A stretch of DNA of 64,000 bases from an uncultured Rhodopila sp. (GTDB lineage Bacteria; Pseudomonadota; Alphaproteobacteria; Acetobacterales; Acetobacteraceae): NCBI GenBank assembly GCA_903932145.1, contig CAIZFE010000098.1, positions 62,001 to 126,000 on the forward strand, given 5' to 3'. Positions 922 through 52,483 of the stretch are shown here, piece by piece; within the stretch, counting starts at the first letter, position 1, and every line of letters starts with the position of its first letter. The position numbers and the translations under genes are program-made. Below the pieces are notes generated by a model. That model did no database searches. It worked only from the letters and a program-made list of their open reading frames with translations, and was not told the DNA's origin.

Positions 922-1118
922 TCAGCCCGCCGGTCGGAACGCGGGGAGTGCGCTCATTCGACTGACGGCAAGAAGGAGCGATCGATGATGGACAGGACCT
1001 CCGGCCGATTGATCGGATCACCAGCGAACAACGCGGACAGGGCGGCTTTGTCCGCCTTCGTTAAAAGCGAGGCTTGGACTTGTGCCTGGTATGATAGGGT
1101 GAATCTGGCGCGGCTCAT
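922..1118 (-). pseudogene. decayed duplicate of the small-protein/Shedu operon
   Basis: Reading from 1118, a 54-residue ORF (MSRARFTLSYQAQ...) matches the 84-residue protein at 2342-2596 at both ends: FTLSY, LTKADKAALSALFAGDP, and LSIIDRSFLP. It lacks 30 internal residues. The missing 90 bp runs between two CGGCCGGA direct repeats in the full copy, so a simple repeat-mediated deletion explains it. The ribosome-binding region before the ATG is also duplicated. As in the full operon, the stop overlaps a downstream ATG in an ATGA; that second frame begins MSAL like the Shedu gene but ends after 11 codons (922-957). So the nuclease is gone and only its start survives. Confidence 0.75.
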
Positions 1119-1255
1119 GCCAATCTGTCCTTTCAGGGTTCCGGGCCACTTAGGTGCGATATCGCTGTGTCTGGCGTCTTGCGGATAAATCGCCCAATGT
1201 CCGGGCAAAGGCCGCCGAAGAGCCCGGACACGGAGGCCCTGGTTACGCTGATAAG

Positions 1256-1724: not shown

Positions 1725-2345
1725 TCAAACCCAACTCTTCAGCCAGCTCAGATTGTCCTCCATAGTGCGTACCATCTCGTCATAGGTGAGCACCACAGCA
1801 GGCTGGCCTTCCACCCTGAGCGAAGCGCGTCTGTGGGCAAACCGCTTCTCCTCCATATCGTCCCGAAGGCTCATCGTGCGTCCGCAGATCACCGCATAGG
1901 TACTGGTCCCGATCCTGCCGCCGAACCCCGCAACCAGCACACTGTCATTGGGATGATCACTGCGCACCCATGCCCAGTCAACGATCTGGCTGAACCCGTG
2001 CTCGATCCGCGGCGACCAATACCGGTACTGTTTCGTTCCTTTCCTGAAGATACTGTCCGGCATCGCATCTTCGAATTCGATCAGACCAAACTGGCGAAGC
2101 CCGTCGTTGCCGAGGACGAGATCGATGCGGAACATGCCTTTCATCTGCAACTCAAACCGGATCAGGTTCGGCGCACTGAATCCGAGGGTGCCGGCCAGCA
2201 GACAGACCATGTGCGGCCGCGATTTGATCTCCGCGACGATAGGTGTTTCGCCAACAAATCCCGCCGTGGCGAGCCATGCCTTGAACGATGCCAATTCCGA
2301 TGTCGCTGTTGGTAAATCGACCGAGATCGCGTGCAGTGCGCTCAT
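1725..2345 (-). CDS. Shedu-type (SduA/DUF4263) nuclease-like protein
   Basis: This 206-residue protein resembles the DUF4263/SduA domain of the Shedu anti-phage system, a PD-(D/E)xK-fold nuclease. The N-terminal third (residues 1-60) is helical. The catalytic-like core follows: MFRIDLVLGND with the Asp, then FGLIEFEDA with acidic residues in the second strand, then SIFRK and the block WSPRIEHGFSQIVDWAW, which is the signature that led me to this call. A C-terminal part ends TYDEMVRTMEDNLSWL. It is a compact single-domain version. The start is set at MSALHAI because that ATG overlaps the stop of the upstream gene (ATGA), which implies translational coupling; a longer upstream frame is open but would overlap that gene. 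The likely role is defence against phage or foreign DNA. I recognised the family by eye only. Confidence 0.75.
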   Translation of the reverse strand: MSALHAISVDLPTATSELASFKAWLATAGFVGETPIVAEIKSRPHMVCLLAGTLGFSAPNLIRFELQMKGMFRIDLVLGNDGLRQFGLIEFEDAMPDSIFRKGTKQYRYWSPRIEHGFSQIVDWAWVRSDHPNDSVLVAGFGGRIGTSTYAVICGRTMSLRDDMEEKRFAHRRASLRVEGQPAVVLTYDEMVRTMEDNLSWLKSWV

Positions 2346-2596
2346 TCGGCCGCCGGCAAGAAGGAGCGATCGATGATGGACAGGATCTCCGGCCGGCCAT
2401 CGCTGGCTTTGTGCCAAACCACAAGCTTGTTGCCACTCCACGAGACAAAGCGTCCATCTTCAGCCACTTTGGTCACGTCCGGCCGATTGACCGGATCACC
2501 CGCGAACAGCTCGGACAGGGCGGCTTTGTCCGCCTCCGTCAAAAACGCGGCCTGGACACTTGCCAGGTATGACAGGGTGAATCGGTCAGAGGTCAT
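2342..2596 (-). CDS. 84-residue protein coupled to the Shedu-type gene
   Basis: A small soluble protein: FTLSYLASV, a helical LTEADKAALSELFAGDP, then a beta-rich part (GRFVSWSGNKLVVWHK) ending ILSIIDRSFLPAAE. The tail pattern recalls small RelE/ParE-fold proteins, but no family can be assigned with confidence. An AGGAAGGA ribosome-binding site precedes the ATG by about 9 nt. Its stop overlaps the Shedu start, so the two are almost certainly one operon and made together. A partial duplicate lies at 922-1118, with both genes in the same order. That fixed pairing suggests the small protein is a partner of the nuclease, for instance a regulator or immunity protein. This is inference. Confidence 0.7.
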   Translation of the reverse strand: MTSDRFTLSYLASVQAAFLTEADKAALSELFAGDPVNRPDVTKVAEDGRFVSWSGNKLVVWHKASDGRPEILSIIDRSFLPAAE

Positions 2597-3073: not shown

Positions 3074-4160
3074 CTACGCGAAGAAGTCCTCATCGACCTT
3101 CTTGATGTGCGGCACCTCCTCAATCCGGCAGCCCACATTATACCGGATCATCAGCCTGGCGAGGTTTTCCCCGTCGATCAGAACAATCCGCTTGCTGAGG
3201 AATGCCGTCGTCTCCTTCGCCGCGAGGCGAGAAGGTCGAGGTCGTCACAAACAGGCCCTTCGTTGCTTTGTGACGGTCGAGGCTGCCAAAGAAATCCCGG
3301 ATCGCCCCGACGCCGATGCTGTTATACCGGTCCGCATTGACATTGACGTACTGCCAATCTGCTTCCGTCATGGCCCGGCTTGTCCGGGCCACCTATCGCG
3401 GCACCGCCATGGCATTGGTGGCCGGGACACGCCGGGCCATGACGATGGGAGGCGAGAGTCGGCATCAACGCGTGCTGGTATTGCCCGCTGCTTACCGTTT
3501 CGCCTGAATAGTGACTCGATCGAGACCGAGTGCGTCCTGGTCGATCACCCCGTCCACACCGTCGTCGTCGCTGCGGCCGATCGTTCGGCCCGCGTCCGCG
3601 GCGGAGCCGCCATAGCCCATTCCGAGCAGCAAATTGACGATGAGACGCTCGAAGAAGGCGGGCGGTGCCGAGCGAATGCGATCGAGCAAATCCTGCCCGA
3701 GCGCTATCTCGACCTGCTTGTGGGCCGCCCGCATGACTTCGTCGGGCGTCTCCGCGCGGCTTACGAGCGGCGGCTCAATCAGTGGAGCGCCCTGTGCGGC
3801 GTCAATGGCCGATTTTTCTTTGAACTGCCGGAATTCGGCGAACTTTTTTGAGAAAGTCATTGTCGATGCGTGAGGGATGGGAGGCGACCACCTGCTGCCC
3901 CCGCTTGATGATCCTGAAATGCCCCCGCAGCGTGCTTTCCAGCAGACCAGCCTTGGTCAGATAGGTCTTGGCCCAATGACTCGGTTTCCGAACAGCGTCT
4001 GTTTGCCGGAGGGCAAGAGTTGGGCTCGATCCTCTGGAGTCAGATTGAGCTGGTCGGCCAGAGAAAGTGGCGAAATGCCTACCGGACGCGAATTGCGGCA
4101 ATGTTATGTCCGCTCGGAGCGCCGATCGAAGTCATTCGAGCCAGTGGCTCTCGTGATGCC
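3074..4160 (-). pseudogene. mrr: mrr-type restriction endonuclease, disrupted
   Basis: The pieces of an Mrr (type IV/modification-dependent restriction) protein lie in order but in different frames. The N-terminal winged-helix part (LADQLNLTPEDRAQLLPSGK, then HWAKTYLTKAGLLEST) lies around 3890-4100. The middle (PPAFFERLIVNLLLGMGYGG, then DGVDGVIDQD and IQAKR) lies around 3492-3800. The catalytic end (AIRDFFGSLDRHKATKGLF, then FLSKRIVLIDGENLARLMIR and KKVDEDFFA) lies around 3074-3340. Lesions seen: frame change near 3978; frame change at a run of six T (A in the gene) at about 3845-3850; an in-frame stop at 3492-3494 after QAKR; an inverted-repeat insertion at 3366-3445; frame change near 3222. 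The homopolymer change alone could be a sequencing error, but together they mean a dead gene. Confidence 0.85.
3366..3445. repeat. REP-like inverted repeat inserted in mrr
   Basis: An 80 nt element whose arms begin CGTCATGGCCCGGCTTGTCC and end with the near inverse complement GCCGGGCCATGACG. It separates the QAKR and AIRDFFGSL blocks of the mrr remnant, which are close together in intact Mrr. The same element occurs at 16.2, 17.2, 23.1 and 52.4 kb, with shorter palindromic versions at 8.8 and 13.4 kb. Confidence 0.8.
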
Positions 4161-4244
4161 TTGCTAGATTATTCCTCATTTGATACATTCCGTATGCAGT
4201 TGGGGGTTGTGGAAGGCATGGTCAAACGAAAGGGGGCACTCCGA

Positions 4245-6071
4245 ATGCCTACTGATACACGCGCTGACTTCTTCGCCGCAATGTCTGGATTGCAGGCGGA
4301 ATTCGTTGCCGCTGCTGCCGACATCGATGCGCGCGAAGCAACGCTACAGAACGCGCTGTCCGATATACGCTACATGCTGCACGACGGCATCGGCGAGACG
4401 GTCCTCGCCCCGTCACACGCGCTCACCCGCTTCATGGCCGATTTCAATGGCGAGCTCGCGAAAATACTACAGGACTGGCTAAGGCGTATCGAGAAGCATG
4501 ACCGCAACACCAAGTTCCGCAAGGGCTTCACCGACAGTCTCGTCGTGTTCGTGCTCGGCAAGGTGAAGGCGGGCAAGAGTTCGCTCGGTAACTACATGGC
4601 CTATGGCTGTAGTAATCCCGAAGGGGTGCCCATCGCCGGAACGCAAGCCAATTTTTTCACCTCCGCTATGGCGCAAGGTGAGGAAGGCCAAGCTGAAGCC
4701 GCCCTTGAGCAGGGCGGCTACTTTCGCGTTGGTGCGCGCGAAACAACGAAATCGATCCAGGGTTTCCGCGTTCCCGGGCTTACCTGGGTCGATTCGCCGG
4801 GGCTGCATTCGGTGACGCGCGAGAACGGGGCTCTTGCCTCTGACTACGCCGACGTCGCCGACCTGATCGTTTATCCGATGCATAGCGGCAATCCCGGCAG
4901 GAAGGGCGACGTCGAGGAAATACAACAACTTCTAAACGCAAAGAAACGTTTCCTTGTAATCATAACGCAGTGCGACAGGCTGGAGGAGGATGAGGCGCCG
5001 GACGGCTCTATCGTCCAGAATTGGGTCATGAAGGACGGGGCCGCCCGCCAGGGGCAGATCGATTACGTGCGCCGCGCCGTCGCTGATGCTGGCGATACAG
5101 TCCCGATCGATCTTCTGAGCCTGTCGGTGCGCTTCGCGGAAACGCATGGCAATAGTCCCGAGGCGCTCGAGGAAAGTGGTCTCGCGGATTTTTTTCGTCT
5201 GCTGACCAGCATCGCCCTTTCAGAAGGCGTGCGCCGCAAGCGCGAAACCCCATCGCGCAATCTCGATCATTTCGTACAGCTTGTACTGGGCACCGATGCG
5301 CGCGGGGGCACTCTGTCGGTCGTGCGGGTTCTCGATCGCCTTCGCAATCTCGAGGAAAAGCTTAACGCCGCTGACGCCGAATTCGACCGGCACACCAACC
5401 GCGTAATCGCGGCCGTCTTAGGCAAGATTGGCCCGATGGTGGCCTATCAGATTAAAATTCACGCCGGCGACAAGGACCAGGCGGGATTCGAGCAGGGGTG
5501 TCGGGACGCATTTCGCCGAATCCTCAGCGAGGAGACGCAAAACGCAATCAGGTCGCTGATTACGTCCACAGATGGCGCGCTCCTGCCAGTTGCGGACTTT
5601 GCCGAAATTTCCGATTTTTTGAAATTCGAGAGTTTCACGATCAAAATTCCGAAGTCAAATCGCAAAACGACCGGTGCGATCGGCGGGGCCGGTGGCGCCG
5701 CCGCTGGTGCCTGGGCTGGCGCGGAACTGGGCGCTATGGCCGGCTCGGTGGTTCCAGGCATTGGTAATCTGATTGGCGGGCTCGTCGGTGGGGCGGTTGG
5801 TGCATTTTTAGGCAGCGCCGTAGGGAGTGCCGCTGGGGAAGCGGCCGGCAGCGACTGGGAACAAAGTATGCAGTCGGGCGACAACCGTGCCGAGGTCGAA
5901 GTAAGTGCCGTCAAGACCTTGCAGGCCGCGGGTCAGGACGCAGTGAAGAAATTCTTCGCAGACATTAACCGCGCCACTATCCAGCCGGTCAGTCAGCGCG
6001 CCGCGCGGCTCGATCACGAACTTTCCCGATTTTCCGACATTCTGAAGAGAAAGGTGCATAGCAATGGCTGA
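4245..6071 (+). CDS. dynamin-like GTPase, first of a pair
   Basis: A 608-residue large GTPase. Residues 1-95 form a helical lead-in. The P-loop GKVKAGKSS is at about 105-113, a likely switch threonine at TTKS (168-169), the G3 motif DSPG at 183-186 and the G4-like TQCD at 241-244. Residues 330-470 are helical stalk-like. Residues 477-535 are a glycine-zipper stretch (repeated GAxxG, GGLVGGAVGAFLG) that could insert in a membrane. The end is charged and helical. This layout fits bacterial dynamin-like proteins, several of which (Eleos/LeoA-LeoBC type) act in phage defence at the membrane. The start at 4245 has AGGGGG about 8 nt upstream; an ATG at 4218 is an alternative. The upstream part of the open frame overlaps the mrr remnant and is not coding. 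It overlaps the next gene by 8 nt. Confidence 0.85.
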   Translation: MPTDTRADFFAAMSGLQAEFVAAAADIDAREATLQNALSDIRYMLHDGIGETVLAPSHALTRFMADFNGELAKILQDWLRRIEKHDRNTKFRKGFTDSLVVFVLGKVKAGKSSLGNYMAYGCSNPEGVPIAGTQANFFTSAMAQGEEGQAEAALEQGGYFRVGARETTKSIQGFRVPGLTWVDSPGLHSVTRENGALASDYADVADLIVYPMHSGNPGRKGDVEEIQQLLNAKKRFLVIITQCDRLEEDEAPDGSIVQNWVMKDGAARQGQIDYVRRAVADAGDTVPIDLLSLSVRFAETHGNSPEALEESGLADFFRLLTSIALSEGVRRKRETPSRNLDHFVQLVLGTDARGGTLSVVRVLDRLRNLEEKLNAADAEFDRHTNRVIAAVLGKIGPMVAYQIKIHAGDKDQAGFEQGCRDAFRRILSEETQNAIRSLITSTDGALLPVADFAEISDFLKFESFTIKIPKSNRKTTGAIGGAGGAAAGAWAGAELGAMAGSVVPGIGNLIGGLVGGAVGAFLGSAVGSAAGEAAGSDWEQSMQSGDNRAEVEVSAVKTLQAAGQDAVKKFFADINRATIQPVSQRAARLDHELSRFSDILKRKVHSNG

Positions 6072-7647
6072 TCCGTTCCGGCTCGCGTTTGATGTCTGGG
6101 CAACGGCGCGCTCGCCACTCGCCCGCCACCTGCCGGCGATCGATATCGAGGAGACCGATGAAGTGCTCGCCGATCGCAGCGGCGCTGCGACGCCACGCAT
6201 CATGGTTTTCGGCACCTACAACGCGGGTAAAAGCACCCTGATAAATGCACTTGTGGGGGAGGAAGTCGCACGCGTCGCCGACCATCCCGAGACCGATCGC
6301 GTGACGAGCTATCCCTGGCGCGGCTTCCTACTCGATGACACACCGGGCATCGACGCGCCGGACACCCACGAGCAGGTTACGCGCAAGCATCTCGACGCCT
6401 CCGACGCCGTGCTCTTCGTGCTCGCCACCGACGGCACGCTTGAGGAGCAGCGCAGCTTTGATGAAATTATCCAGCGTGTGCGCACCGGCAAGCCTATCCG
6501 GGTCATTCTCAACAACAAAAGTGGCTTTCGGTCCGGCAGCCCGGAGTTCCTCAGCTCGCGCGACCGCCTGGCCGATAATCTGCGCCGCGCCGCCGCTGTG
6601 GCGGGGATCGAAGATATTGAAACCCGTGCACCAATTCGGCTTGTCAACGCCGCATCCGGGCTGCGAGCCCGGCTCGAGGGCAAGTTGGCGCTGCTGGCGA
6701 ACAGCGGCCTGCTGGAGCTCGAAGCAGACATTGCAGAACTCTGCGAGACCACTGGCAAAGCGGACATGGCCCGCACGGTATGTCGGCTCATTGCGAAACA
6801 AATCGATCAGGCCCTAAGGGACCTACCGGTAGATGATGCAATGCAGCCCTTCCACGTGCGCGCCGATGCGATCGCCGCGGAGCGCATACGGCTCACCGCA
6901 GTGCTTGACGTCGCATCACAAGAGGCCGCCGCCCATTTTCAGGCGGAGCTGACGCGCGCGTTTGCGAGCCGCGACCCGCAATTTGGCCCGACTGCCGCCA
7001 ACGAAGCAGCTGACGCCGTCAGTGCCATCATCGAACGCGAATTGCACCGGACGCAGCGTGTTTTTGGTGATATCGAAAGCACTTTCGCCGCTCAAATGAT
7101 CGCGATCCGTCCCGTGTCCGGCCCGGGCATCCCGCTGCCTGAAGGACCGGCGCCACAGGATGTCGGTTTTGGTTTCAGTGACGCCGCAAAGCTTCTCACC
7201 CCCACACTGAACCAATTCGACAAGGAAACCCTCGTAGGCGGTTTGATGGTTGCCAAGAGAATACTTCCCAAATCTGTTTTCGCTGGTATAGGTGAAAAAA
7301 CCTTCGGGAAGATTGTCGGGAAGGCGATGCCATTCATCGGCCCCGCCATCCAGGTTGTGACTGGCATCTATGATTCATACTCCGCGCATCGCGAGGCGCA
7401 GAAGGACTTCGAACGCGAGAAAGATCGCCGCATTGCCCTTCAACAGGAGATCACGGATACGGGACGCAAAATGCGCTGGGCGCTCAGTGAGCAATGCCTA
7501 GATGTAATCGAATCCATCTTCGGACCGGTCGAGGACGCGCTTGGGAAGCAAGCCGCCGATGTGAGGGGCGCGGCCGCGAAAGTGGAAGCCGACCGTGCCG
7601 TGCTGATAAAGTGCAAGGGACGGCTCAATATCGCACTGGCAGATTAA
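6064..7647 (+). CDS. dynamin-like GTPase, second of a pair
   Basis: A 527-residue GTPase. The P-loop GTYNAGKST is at 50-58, a threonine of the switch region around 78-82 (TDRVTSY), G3 DTPG at 92-95 and G4 at 150-153, which reads NNKS rather than the usual NKxD, so base recognition may differ. Residues 230-360 are helical. A hydrophobic region (roughly 405-440, including GKAMPFIGPAIQVVTGIY) could bind membrane, followed by charged helices. The start overlaps the end of the first GTPase in ATGGCTGA, so the two are translationally coupled. Two unequal dynamin-like subunits encoded back to back is the arrangement of known bacterial dynamin pairs. The location beside Shedu and mrr genes points to a defence role; that is inference. 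Confidence 0.85.
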   Translation: MADPFRLAFDVWATARSPLARHLPAIDIEETDEVLADRSGAATPRIMVFGTYNAGKSTLINALVGEEVARVADHPETDRVTSYPWRGFLLDDTPGIDAPDTHEQVTRKHLDASDAVLFVLATDGTLEEQRSFDEIIQRVRTGKPIRVILNNKSGFRSGSPEFLSSRDRLADNLRRAAAVAGIEDIETRAPIRLVNAASGLRARLEGKLALLANSGLLELEADIAELCETTGKADMARTVCRLIAKQIDQALRDLPVDDAMQPFHVRADAIAAERIRLTAVLDVASQEAAAHFQAELTRAFASRDPQFGPTAANEAADAVSAIIERELHRTQRVFGDIESTFAAQMIAIRPVSGPGIPLPEGPAPQDVGFGFSDAAKLLTPTLNQFDKETLVGGLMVAKRILPKSVFAGIGEKTFGKIVGKAMPFIGPAIQVVTGIYDSYSAHREAQKDFEREKDRRIALQQEITDTGRKMRWALSEQCLDVIESIFGPVEDALGKQAADVRGAAAKVEADRAVLIKCKGRLNIALAD

Positions 7648-10915: not shown

Positions 10916-11389
10916 CGTGTACCAGGACATTATTAAATCGAGCTGAATCCGCTTGCGTGGATCGGCAGGAAAACGGTTTTCCGGCGTCTGGTTCAACATC
11001 CTTCTGGCGCGGCGGTTATCTCGCCAACCATCGATTCGTCTGCGTCATCACCTCACGAAGATGTGGGTCGAAAGAATGCCGGACAATAGCTTAAATTCTA
11101 TACCGGTTCCGCGCGAATTTTTCCCGCGAACACAGCCGCGCCCTCGCGCAGCGACCGGGCCGGCACCCATGGCGAAAGGTTAGCCCGCGCGATGGTGTTG
11201 TTCGTCCTACTGTGCCGGGCTGGATGGCTCCGCGTATTAGGCGGGCCTCGCCACATTCATGCCTTGGAGCGGGGCTATCGCTTACTCCTGCTGAACCGCG
11301 TTGCGCCGGCGTTGGTCGCTTTGCTGGCAACACGCTTGTCTGGACTCACGTCACGTTCGATTAACATTCGGTGTCAGACGCCTCCCGCA
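10916..11389. other. intergenic region before the caspase-domain gene
   Basis: About 470 nt without a supported gene. The frame of the caspase protein stays open upstream to 11192 but codes an unlikely Leu-rich sequence before the signal peptide. The region probably holds the promoter of the downstream gene. Confidence 0.35.
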
Positions 11390-13342
11390 ATGCGCAAATG
11401 GGTCAACTTCATCGCAATAAGCTTTGTTCTGCTGCTGGGCACCGTGTCCGCGGCGGTATCGCAAGAAAAACGTGTCGCGTTGGTCGTTGGGGTGAGTGCC
11501 TATAAACATGCGAATACTTTGCCAAATACTCTGAATGACGCGAAAGACATTGCGGCGGCGTTATCGCGGTTGGGCTTTGAGGTTGAGACCGTGAAGGACC
11601 CGGATCGGGCTGCCCTGGAAGCCAGTGTTCGCCGGTTGGGCGACCGAGCCCGCGGCGCCGATGTGGCGCTGTTCTATTACGCCGGGCACGCGCTGGAATA
11701 TGGAGGCCAGAACTGGCTGGTTCCGGTTCAGGCCGATCTGCACACAGAACGGGATCTCAGGTTCGAAACGCTCGAAGTCGATGCGGTCATGGACCAGATC
11801 GTCGGTCAGGCCCGGATTTCCCTGGTGATGCTGGATTCCTGCCGGGACAACCCGTTTCGCCATGCCCTGACAGGATCATTTCGAGATATGCCGGTCGGAC
11901 GCGGGCTGGCGGCGCCGCTGACCGGTGCCTCCGGGACATTGGTTGTCTATGCCACCGCGCCGGGCAGCGTGGCGGATGACGGCGGCGGCCCGCATAGCCC
12001 GTTCACCGCTGCCCTGCTGCGGCACATTGAGGAGCCCGGTGTCGAGATCCGCGAGTTGATTACCAGGGTCCGGCGGGATGTGCGCCAGGCAACCGGTGGG
12101 CGGCAGACTCCCTGGGACAGTTCGTCACTGGAGGGGCAGTTCTTCCTGCGTCCGGTGTCGGCGGACGGTGAGACGGTCTATTGGAGCTCCGTCCAAAACA
12201 GCAACGATCCTGCTGCCATACAGTCCTATCTGTCCCGCTATCCGAACGGGGTGTTCGCTGATCTGGCTCTAAGCCGAATCGAACAGATTCGGCTGGTGAG
12301 TTCGAGCGCGTCGGTCAAAGCAAAACCTGTAGCAGATCCAAAGGCCGCCGCTGAGGCAAAAAAACTGGCGGACCAGCAGGCGGCCGCCGAGGCAGGGCAA
12401 ATTCTGGCCGAACAAAAGGCGGCGGCGGAAGCGAAGCGGCTTGCGGATCACCGGGCGGCGGTGGAGGCAAAGCGGCTTGCCAATGAGCAGGCTGAGGCGG
12501 CGCAAAGCATGCAAGCGAAAAGGTTTGCGGATCACACGGCCGCAGCCGAGGCCACAAGGCTCGCGGACGAAAAGGCAACTGCCGATGCCGCCCGGCGGTT
12601 TGCGGAGCAGAGGGCGGACGCGGCACAGCAATTGGCCGAACCCGATGTCGAAGCCGCGCAGCGATTTGCCGAACAACGCGCGGCGGCGGAAGCGGCTTTG
12701 CGGACGACAGATGAACGAGAGGCTGCCCGTAAGCAGATGGCTCGGAGATTGGCGGATCAACGGGCGGCTGCCGAAGCGGTACGCAAGCCAGCGGAACAGA
12801 CCTCACTGTCGGCACCGAGCCGGGAACAATCGGCCGGGGCGGAGTTCGAGGACGCCGCGCAGCGCTTTGCGGATCAAAGAGCCGCTGCCGAGGAGGCCCG
12901 TCAATTTGCGATCCGGAGGGCCGCCGGGGAACCGTCAAGGCAGGTTGCCGAACTCGCAGCTCAGCCGGGATCATCGCGAACGTTGGGCGACCCGCCGGGG
13001 GACAGTCAGCGTCTTGCCATGATCGTACCGCAGCCCAATCCACCGGCCGCCCCGCGGCTTTCAGCCGGGACAATTTTTGGAACCTGGTGCTCCGGACCGG
13101 TCAAGATGACGCTCACGGCCAGTCAGTGGAAATTCCATTACCGGAACGGAACCGCGGCGAGCTATCCGATCGATCATTATAGCATTGAGGCTGATCGCGT
13201 CGTCATTCAGTCCAGCATCGCGTCCCAAAGGGTGGTCACGGAGTTTTCCGGAATCACGCCAAACGGATTGATTCAATTGCGCGGCAGGAATGACGCCTCT
13301 GATTGGGTGACCTACAATCGCGCGTTCAGCCGCTGCAATTAG
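11390..13342 (+). CDS. secreted caspase-family (peptidase C14) repeat protein
   Basis: The protein is 650 residues from the ATG at 11390, chosen because it opens a clean signal peptide (NFIAISFVLLLGTVSAAVSQ). The caspase-like p20 domain follows at about 27-250: VALVVGVSAYKH, the catalytic His in FYYAGHALEYG (His 100), and the catalytic Cys in LVMLDSCRDNPF (Cys 151). Next comes a long coiled-coil-like low-complexity stretch (about 305-600) built from variants of AAAEAKRLADQ. The final 90 residues form a small domain beginning FGTWCSGPVKMTL, with beta-rich spacing. The catalytic pair is intact, so it may be an active protease in the periplasm. The Ala/Lys/Gln repeats resemble TolA-like spacers that bridge the periplasm. 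The function is unknown. Confidence 0.8.
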   Translation: MRKWVNFIAISFVLLLGTVSAAVSQEKRVALVVGVSAYKHANTLPNTLNDAKDIAAALSRLGFEVETVKDPDRAALEASVRRLGDRARGADVALFYYAGHALEYGGQNWLVPVQADLHTERDLRFETLEVDAVMDQIVGQARISLVMLDSCRDNPFRHALTGSFRDMPVGRGLAAPLTGASGTLVVYATAPGSVADDGGGPHSPFTAALLRHIEEPGVEIRELITRVRRDVRQATGGRQTPWDSSSLEGQFFLRPVSADGETVYWSSVQNSNDPAAIQSYLSRYPNGVFADLALSRIEQIRLVSSSASVKAKPVADPKAAAEAKKLADQQAAAEAGQILAEQKAAAEAKRLADHRAAVEAKRLANEQAEAAQSMQAKRFADHTAAAEATRLADEKATADAARRFAEQRADAAQQLAEPDVEAAQRFAEQRAAAEAALRTTDEREAARKQMARRLADQRAAAEAVRKPAEQTSLSAPSREQSAGAEFEDAAQRFADQRAAAEEARQFAIRRAAGEPSRQVAELAAQPGSSRTLGDPPGDSQRLAMIVPQPNPPAAPRLSAGTIFGTWCSGPVKMTLTASQWKFHYRNGTAASYPIDHYSIEADRVVIQSSIASQRVVTEFSGITPNGLIQLRGRNDASDWVTYNRAFSRCN

Positions 13343-17179: not shown

Positions 17180-17258
17180 CGTCATGGCCCGTTTGGTCCG
17201 GGCCACCCGTGTCCTGACGGTGTCGCGCCAGGTGGCCCGGACAAGCCGGGCCATGACA
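17180..17258. repeat. REP-like inverted repeat between phoU and phoB
   Basis: A 79 nt element with arms CGTCATGGCCCGTTTGGTCC and GGACAAGCCGGGCCATGACA; the inner arms GGGCCACC and GGTGGCCC also pair. In the operon mRNA it would fold into a long hairpin between the two genes and may reduce read-through or protect upstream mRNA. Confidence 0.85.
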
Positions 17259-22994: not shown

Positions 22995-23489
22995 GGAAGC
23001 GCGTCTCCTGAGCGGTGCCGGCGATTTAGGCTGTCGGCGGCGAATGCGCCACTGGGTTTATGACAGTGCGCGCCATATCTCGGGGGGGGCACCAATCCCG
23101 TCGTCATGGCCGGGCTCGTCCGGGCCACCTGTCGCGGCACCGTCAGGTCACGGGTGGCTCGGACAAGCATGGCCATGACGGAAGTGGAAGAGCCGCACAT
23201 CGCCATCAACAGCGGCTGACATAATCTGTCCCATCCGGCCCACGGGAGCCAACGGATAGCCGCGCCAGACCCCGCACAAGTCGGCCTCGACAAACCGGAA
23301 CGTTTCATTAGGGGCGGGTTTCGCGCCGCGATTTGATAATGCGCACGGGCGATAATGTTGATTCAATCAAGTTGATTGCAACAACAAACGACTCCGTATA
23401 TTCGAATCTGTTGCGATTGACCCTTGTAAAGTTCGCGTGATGCCTGTTATAGACGCCGAAATTGCCGAAATTCAGGAGTATCGCGGAAC
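22995..23489. other. intergenic region between purU and the FOXRED2-like gene
   Basis: About 495 nt between divergent genes. It holds the REP-like repeat at 23101-23179 and an AT-richer stretch at 23330-23480 that probably contains the promoter of the flavoprotein gene. No gene was recognised. Confidence 0.4.
23101..23179. repeat. REP-like inverted repeat
   Basis: A 79 nt element with arms CGTCATGGCCGGGCTCGTCC and GGACAAGCATGGCCATGACG; the inner GGGCCACC and GGTGGCTC partly pair. It is a copy of the family at 3.4, 16.2, 17.2 and 52.4 kb. Confidence 0.8.
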
Positions 23490-52401: not shown

Positions 52402-52483
52402 CGTCATGGCCCGGCTTGTCCGGGCCACCTATGCCCTGACGGTGCCGCGAGAGGTGGCCCGGACAAGCCGGGCCATGACGATG
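52402..52483. repeat. REP-like inverted repeat, best-conserved copy
   Basis: 82 nt with arms TCGTCATGGCCCGGCTTGTC and GACAAGCCGGGCCATGACGA that match perfectly, with inner GGGCCACC and GGTGGCCC. It lies between the rubrerythrin gene and the Fe-S gene of the same operon. Confidence 0.85.

What the first reader, a model, noticed from the sequence alone, without database searches (positions are those of the whole stretch)
4245..7647. Coupled pair of unequal dynamin-like GTPases beside Shedu and mrr: candidate membrane-acting defence system
Seen: two overlapping genes (8 nt overlap), each with P-loop and DxPG motifs, the first with a glycine-zipper segment, the second with a non-canonical NNKS in place of NKxD. 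Known: bacterial dynamin pairs such as Eleos (LeoA/LeoBC) protect against phage. The pair stands between a Shedu operon, a dead mrr and ordinary genes. Inference: a two-component dynamin defence system, possibly a variant not covered by known profiles, since the lead-in and the glycine-zipper differ from the LeoA plan as far as I can recall.
Basis: partly seen in the sequence, partly recalled or inferred. Interest (0 to 1): 0.72.

Follow-up and report, generated by a model that had tools for sequence, protein, structure and literature searches.

The report
Stripped-down dynamin pair from defence cassette
Two overlapping genes encode a pair of membrane-shaping dynamin-like proteins that look like the core of a previously unnamed four-gene set found beside other anti-virus genes in many bacteria, here reduced to two genes.

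Summary
DLP1 (4245 or 4218 to 6071) and DLP2 (6064-7647) overlap by 8 nt and are two different dynamin-like GTPases next to a Shedu gene and a broken mrr. They are not canonical Eleos: they score 62 and 96 bits where a canonical LeoBC/LeoA pair scores 344 and 351, and they form clades apart from it.

What is new: in 44 of 56 related loci the pair is the end of a four-gene cassette. The order is small GTPase, N-terminally anchored coiled-coil protein, DLP1, DLP2. The cassette can sit beside type III CRISPR, BREX, type I restriction and WYL regulators. The window carries a two-gene form, which arose at least twice, both times in Acetobacteraceae; the small GTPase is absent from those genomes. 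The pair is under purifying selection, rare and patchy. I read it as a membrane-acting anti-phage effector driven by GTP. Defence is inferred from context; nothing here tests it.

The parts
4245..6071 (+). DLP1, dynamin-like GTPase (608 aa; 617 aa if the start is ATG 4218)
   Evidence: ORF and translation; Pfam Dynamin_N 1e-8; AlphaFold2 model pLDDT 79.5, matches BDLP and LeoA over much of its length; start uncertainty from Rhodopila orthologues
4557..4580 (+). DLP1 P-loop GKVKAGKS (residues 105-112)
   Evidence: sequence; G105, V107, K108, K111, S112 invariant in 39 DLP1 rows
4791..4802 (+). DLP1 DSPG motif (residues 183-186)
   Evidence: D183, P185, G186 invariant in 39 rows
4965..4976 (+). 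DLP1 G4-like TQCD (residues 241-244)
   Evidence: D244 invariant, T241 nearly invariant; resemblance to the TKxD of dynamins is recalled
5664..5846 (+). DLP1 glycine-zipper tip, predicted membrane paddle (residues 474-534)
   Evidence: pLDDT below 50, between trunk helices; G+A 0.29-0.58 in 36 of 39 DLP1 rows, 0.12-0.16 in L029, L058, L069
6064..6071 (+). 8-nt overlap of the two genes
   Evidence: coordinates
6064..7647 (+). DLP2, dynamin-like GTPase (527 aa)
   Evidence: ORF and translation; Pfam MMR_HSR1 5e-15 and Dynamin_N 5e-13; AlphaFold2 model pLDDT 78.1 with matches to IniA, mitofusin-1, BDLP
6211..6234 (+). DLP2 P-loop GTYNAGKS (residues 50-57)
   Evidence: G50, Y52, N53, G55, K56, S57 invariant in 39 rows
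6337..6348 (+). DLP2 DTPG (residues 92-95)
   Evidence: invariant in 39 rows
6511..6522 (+). DLP2 NNKS in the G4 place (residues 150-153)
   Evidence: N150 invariant, K152 nearly invariant in 39 rows: a family trait, not a lesion
7102..7374 (+). DLP2 tip region, low confidence, hydrophobic peak at residues 417-435
1725..2441 (-). Shedu SduA (context, not part of the pair)
   Evidence: Pfam SduA_C 7e-12, PADLOC 2e-37
3138..3860 (-). broken mrr-type restriction gene, two pieces at 3492-3860 and 3138-3392 (context)
   Evidence: Mrr_cat 1e-10 and PADLOC mREase_IV positions 116-229 and 222-266; repeat copies at 3367-3443

Best explanation
The pair is a reduced, two-gene form of a four-gene cassette: small GTPase, N-terminally anchored coiled-coil protein, DLP1, DLP2. 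Proposed mechanism: DLP1 and DLP2 assemble together at the inner membrane, DLP1 inserting its glycine-zipper tip. Assembly and GTP turnover are set off when phage infection disturbs the membrane. The assembled coat holds or reshapes the membrane so that release of phage is delayed or blocked, as reported for Bacillus DynA. In the four-gene form the small GTPase and the anchor would recruit and gate the dynamins; in this host the pair must find the membrane on its own. Shown here: two dynamin-like proteins, conserved pairing, the cassette, absence of two genes in this family, purifying selection, defence surroundings in a number of relatives. Inferred: hetero-assembly, membrane insertion, trigger and outcome.
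For: Both predicted structures match bacterial dynamins and mitofusin beyond the G domain. Order DLP1-DLP2 and tight coupling in 56 loci; small GTPase upstream in 44 of 56, anchor in 43 of those 44, and in the other one (L068) a GTPase with an N-terminal hydrophobic extension takes both places. The two-gene state needs 2 changes on the 48-row tree and starred branches force 2. A small-GTPase profile scores 307-336 bits in 3 of 3 four-gene genomes, while in 7 of 7 two-gene genomes its best hit is DLP2 itself, 67-97 bits, and nothing else exceeds about 41 bits. dN/dS about 0.16-0.22 among three orthologues (from dN and dS). Defence setting: inside a type III CRISPR locus, beside Cas6/CARF/Cmr1, CARF nucleases, BrxB/BrxC, type I restriction, AbiE; WYL regulators in 13 of 141 neighbour genes against 0 of 138 control genes. 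The pair's relatives are on 29 Klebsiella, Raoultella and Citrobacter plasmid records. Precedents: DynA delays lysis and needs its P-loop lysines (PMC8844932, discussion section); a Campylobacter DLP pair forms hetero-tetramers that tether membranes (PMC6104087, passages).
Against: No functional test. Apart from WYL, the neighbour excess over control is modest and could not be counted per protein (the tool lists only 25 of 39 families). Several relatives stand among ordinary genes: L036, L060, L067, L071 by reading of their ORFs. In the window only Shedu, the dead mrr and the pair make up the visible island. The window's flanks could not be compared with an empty site in the genus. Absence of the two other genes leaves their role open. 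The neighbour and control sets come from different mixes of genomes.
Confidence: 0.5

Rival explanations
1. Abortive effector: the assembled pair permeabilises or depolarises the inner membrane and kills the infected cell before phage matures. The four-gene form keeps it off with the small GTPase and WYL control.
For: Glycine-zipper tip in most DLP1 rows; WYL regulators beside many four-gene copies, which fits tight control of something harmful.
Against: No toxicity data. The two-gene form persists in two lineages without the presumed control genes.
Confidence: 0.27
2. It is simply Eleos: a divergent LeoBC-LeoA pair, with DLP1 = LeoBC and DLP2 = LeoA.
For: PADLOC's best hits are LeoBC for DLP1 and LeoA for DLP2, and both profiles match all 8 rows of each early alignment; same gene order and overlap as the canonical pair in L102.
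Against: 62 and 96 bits against 344 and 351 for the canonical pair. The same LeoA profile also hits the small GTPases. BLASTP of DLP1 with LeoBC E = 0.01. LeoA and LeoBC fall outside the DLP1 and DLP2 clades (one reference pair only, on long branches). NF041922 scores 19 bits against a cut-off of 325.
Confidence: 0.13
3. Not defence: an envelope-maintenance or vesicle-release pair that travels with islands and plasmids.
For: LeoABC is reported to raise vesicle release (PMC4159319, passages). Some copies sit among housekeeping genes.
Against: Rare and patchy: 2 of 398 genomes. Embedded in a CRISPR locus and beside several unrelated defence systems.
Confidence: 0.15
4. A decaying remnant of a four-gene system that no longer works.
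For: Two of four genes are missing here, and the small GTPase is missing from the genomes of 7 of 7 two-gene carriers tested.
Against: dN/dS about 0.16-0.22 across three orthologues, intact motifs, and the same two-gene form kept in two lineages.
Confidence: 0.07

Closest known systems
Eleos (LeoBC + LeoA)
   Same: Two dynamin-like GTPases, same order, short overlap; PADLOC profiles match at 62-96 bits
   Different: Far below canonical scores (344-351 bits); separate clades; most relatives carry a small GTPase and an anchored protein in addition
LeoABC of E. coli (NF041922 LeoA/HP0731 family)
   Same: Dynamin fold; glycine-rich paddle and paired genes (PMC4159319, passages); structure match of DLP1 to 4aur Z 15.1 over 417 residues, rmsd 13.6
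   Different: 19 bits against a cut-off of 325
Bacillus subtilis DynA
   Same: Two dynamin units acting together; GTPase-dependent phage phenotype reported (PMC8844932, abstract and discussion section)
   Different: DynA is one fused protein; here two genes in an island; NF052648 only 13 bits
Campylobacter Cj-DLP1/Cj-DLP2
   Same: Hetero-oligomeric dynamin pair that tethers membranes (PMC6104087, passages); best solved-structure hit of the DLP1 profile, 31 bits
   Different: Low sequence similarity; no small GTPase or anchor described in the passages seen

Membership tests
Eleos | Proteins match LeoBC and LeoA profiles at the level of canonical members | tested here: not met
   62 and 96 bits against 344 and 351 for L102. 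PADLOC's own reporting cut-offs were not available.
Eleos | DLP1 groups with LeoBC and DLP2 with LeoA in a tree | tested here: inconclusive
   Leo rows fall outside both clades (D1 support 100, D2 86), but only one Leo pair, on long branches
Eleos | Protects against phage | not testable with these tools
   needs a bench assay
LeoA/HP0731 (NF041922) | Score over the curated cut-off of 325 bits | tested here: not met
   DLP2 19 bits; DLP1 no hit
Dynamin-like proteins | Dynamin_N GTPase domain over the Pfam cut-off | tested here: met
   35.9 and 49.9 bits, cut-off 27
Dynamin-like proteins | GTPase head followed by helical neck/trunk with a membrane tip | tested here: met
   Predicted models; DLP1 to BDLP Z 16.2 over 425 residues (rmsd 37.5, so domains are placed differently); DLP2 to mitofusin-1 Z 17.6 over 283 residues, rmsd 6.1. 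Tips are low confidence.
Heterotypic bacterial DLP pair | Two unlike DLPs in one operon | tested here: met
   DLP1 and DLP2 are separate clades, paired in 56 loci
Heterotypic bacterial DLP pair | Physical hetero-oligomer with stimulated GTP hydrolysis | not testable with these tools
   only single chains could be folded
Four-gene cassette found here | DLP1 and DLP2 of the cassette families | tested here: met
   720 and 649 bits to the 8-row family profiles, which include these two proteins; nested in the cassette tree
Four-gene cassette found here | Small GTPase and anchored coiled-coil gene upstream | tested here: not met
   not found upstream in the window, and the small GTPase not found in the genome

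The most novel reading that the evidence does not exclude
A new multi-GTPase immune system: a small GTPase switch and a membrane-anchored coiled-coil adaptor gate a hetero-dynamin membrane machine. It is sometimes wired into type III CRISPR loci, often under WYL control, often with a CxxCxxCC metal-binding protein. Acetobacteraceae have twice stripped it to the bare dynamin pair.
Probability: 0.45. Interest if true: 0.8.

Novelty: new variant of a known kind. Interest (0 to 1): 0.6.

Why it matters
How bacterial dynamins protect against phage is little known. This cassette offers natural four-part and two-part versions, so the need for a GTPase switch and an anchor can be tested directly. It would also give a bacterial parallel to membrane-acting immune GTPases of animals, and a candidate partner of type III CRISPR. 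It shows that a LeoA/LeoBC profile hit can hide a different system.

Tried and rejected
Single-protein scan of genome contigs with DLP2 found no relative; the profile scan then gave 60 loci. Phage records: no match for DLP1 or a Pseudomonas DLP2; viral contigs gave 3 weak GTPase matches. E. coli genomes: no match for one Enterobacteriaceae DLP2 gene. NF041922 in 299 Pseudomonadota genomes: none, and the control did not ring, so this shows nothing. An empty-site test failed: the nearest right-hand gene has no match in 10 relatives, and around the next one, found in 7 of 10, nothing else matches the window. Acinetobacter and Caballeronia pairs (L083, L084) score low on the family profiles and were left out. 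Rejected: NNKS as a lesion; the glycine zipper as a novelty; the reading that the pair is housekeeping.

Rows dropped: one search used 43 of 56 modules (L040 DLP1 failed the P-loop pattern, so 42 DLP1); one search used 48 of 56; the neighbour set used 41 modules and 141 of 142 genes; the control used 138 of 149 genes. L064 is counted as without small GTPase but has another GTPase between DLP1 and DLP2. L022 is fragmented and was not counted as a module.

That I found no description of the four-gene cassette in print rests only on ten searches of the open library; database families for the anchor are absent. The original Eleos paper was not seen; what I say of it is recalled.
Full report
What is there. 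Window 4245-6071 and 6064-7647 (plus strand) are two open genes that overlap by 8 nt. Both are dynamin-like GTPases by Pfam. DLP1 has GKVKAGKS, DSPG and TQCD; DLP2 has GTYNAGKS, DTPG and NNKS. DLP1 may start at 4218: both Rhodopila orthologues carry an ATG at that alignment position. To the left are SduA of Shedu (1725-2441, minus) and an mrr-type gene in two pieces with repeat copies between or over them. To the right is an MPAB/Lcp-family gene.

Structure. AlphaFold2 models with 37-row family alignments reach mean pLDDT 79.5 (DLP1) and 78.1 (DLP2). DLP1 aligns with BDLP (Z 16.2, 425 residues, rmsd 37.5), LeoA (Z 15.1, 417 residues, rmsd 13.6) and IniA (Z 15.1, 276 residues, rmsd 8.1). DLP2 aligns with IniA (Z 19.1, 263 residues, rmsd 10.2), mitofusin-1 (Z 17.6, 283 residues, rmsd 6.1) and BDLP (Z 17.1, 360 residues, rmsd 20.1). 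Many ordinary GTPases score similarly through the G domain alone, so the long alignments matter more than Z. The glycine-rich stretch of DLP1 (474-534) and residues 347-437 of DLP2 are low confidence and lie where dynamin tips lie.

Relatives. A profile scan of the species-genome collection gave 60 loci. With plasmid loci and the window, 56 hold a DLP1-DLP2 module; this count includes near-copies. In 44 of 56 a small GTPase (about 270-320 aa in most; 427 aa in L068) lies upstream; in 9 it does not; 3 are cut by a contig end. In 43 of the 44, a small protein lies between; of 32 aligned (128-206 aa), 26 have a strongly hydrophobic N-terminus, usually followed by an acidic or serine-rich linker and a coiled-coil-like tail. 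In L068 a 427-aa protein joins a hydrophobic N-terminus to the GTPase. A CxxCxxCC protein (PF03692 in L070) accompanies 15 loci by BLAST cluster and up to 25 of 56 by a loose cysteine pattern. No Pfam family over its cut-off, PADLOC or NCBIfam family fits the anchor.

Reduction. A tree of GTPase domains puts DLP1, DLP2, small GTPase and the Leo reference pair each on one side of a branch (quick method, long Leo branches). A joint DLP1+DLP2 tree of 48 modules shows the two-gene form in two places, the Rhodopila group with the window and the acetic-acid bacteria, and starred branches force two changes. Whether these are losses or gains depends on the root; nesting among four-gene forms favours losses. 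A small-GTPase profile finds true members at 307-336 bits in three four-gene genomes, while in seven two-gene genomes DLP2 itself is the best hit and nothing else passes about 41 bits. The anchor was not sought genome-wide.

Selection and spread. dN 0.17-0.20 and dS 0.83-1.26 between the window and two Rhodopila orthologues and between these two give dN/dS of about 0.16-0.22. Only the pair, not its flanks, is shared with those Rhodopila loci. DLP1 is in 6 of 299 genomes of the order, none of the 8 other same-genus genomes listed among them. DLP2 is in 2 of 398 genomes of the phylum. Both counts include the window's own genome. GC3 of the pair is 0.68, as for SduA, against 0.74-0.87 for four nearby genes.

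Setting of relatives. On a Photobacterium plasmid the cassette stands inside a type III CRISPR locus, between cas1-cas2 and RAMP genes. L047 is followed by Cas6, a CARF protein and Cmr1; L026 and L028 have CARF genes upstream; L030 has BrxB and BrxC. L037 has a type I restriction enzyme next to the pair. The pair's relatives occur on 23 Klebsiella, 4 Raoultella and 2 Citrobacter plasmid records; in the one whose surroundings I opened, an S-4TM effector and a TrlF ATPase are near. Among 141 genes within two of 41 modules, PADLOC at 1e-15 rings 39 families, WYL in 13 genes; among 138 control genes, 9 families and no WYL. Without WYL the excess is smaller and could not be counted per gene. L036, L060, L067 and L071 look like ordinary surroundings.

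Known systems. A canonical Eleos pair found on the way (L102) scores 351 (LeoA) and 344 (LeoBC) bits; the window pair scores 96 and 62. NF041922 gives 19 bits against 325. LeoA is described as having a glycine-rich paddle and LeoABC as raising vesicle release (PMC4159319, passages). DynA delays lysis and needs P-loop lysines (PMC8844932, discussion section). The Campylobacter pair forms 2:2 hetero-tetramers that tether membranes (PMC6104087, passages). One survey grouped Eleos and Dynamins as one type (PMC11811056, passages).

Reading. The pair is a distinct dynamin pair, best seen as the effector core of a four-gene cassette. That it acts at membranes and against phage is inferred from fold, tip, company and precedent. 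My commitment is to a GTP-driven membrane machine that delays or blocks phage release, with abortive membrane damage as the main rival.

Noticed in passing
window 3367-3443, 17181-17257, 23103-23179, 52403-52479: Paired inverted copies of a 25-base palindromic repeat (10 matches with up to 3 mismatches in the window, 0 expected); one pair lies in the broken mrr gene.
   Followed up: partly
window 954-1208 and 2342-2596 (minus): Two similar 84-aa ORFs near SduA, the first lacking an internal part; DNA 85-90% alike over two blocks of 136 and 71 bases. Possibly a small Shedu partner and a degenerate copy.
   Followed up: partly
L017 4627-5352 and 5798-6586 (contig left of the window): Two similar ORFs with a shared RSVFINCPFD stretch and no Pfam hit at 0.01.
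   Followed up: no
window 11192-13342: Long ORF with a caspase-like N-terminal part (recalled, not searched) and a long alanine-rich repeat region.
   Followed up: no
L044 9884-11023 and similar genes in 7 loci: A further GTPase with a DUF697 domain close to the cassette in several Pseudomonas and in Gluconobacter.
   Followed up: partly
L011 713-2458: Two further related GTPase genes upstream of csm6 in the Photobacterium CRISPR locus.
   Followed up: no
L029 4466-4864, L068 4358-4756: TerB-like gene directly upstream of the cassette in L029 (PF05099) and a similar-looking ORF in L068.
   Followed up: partly
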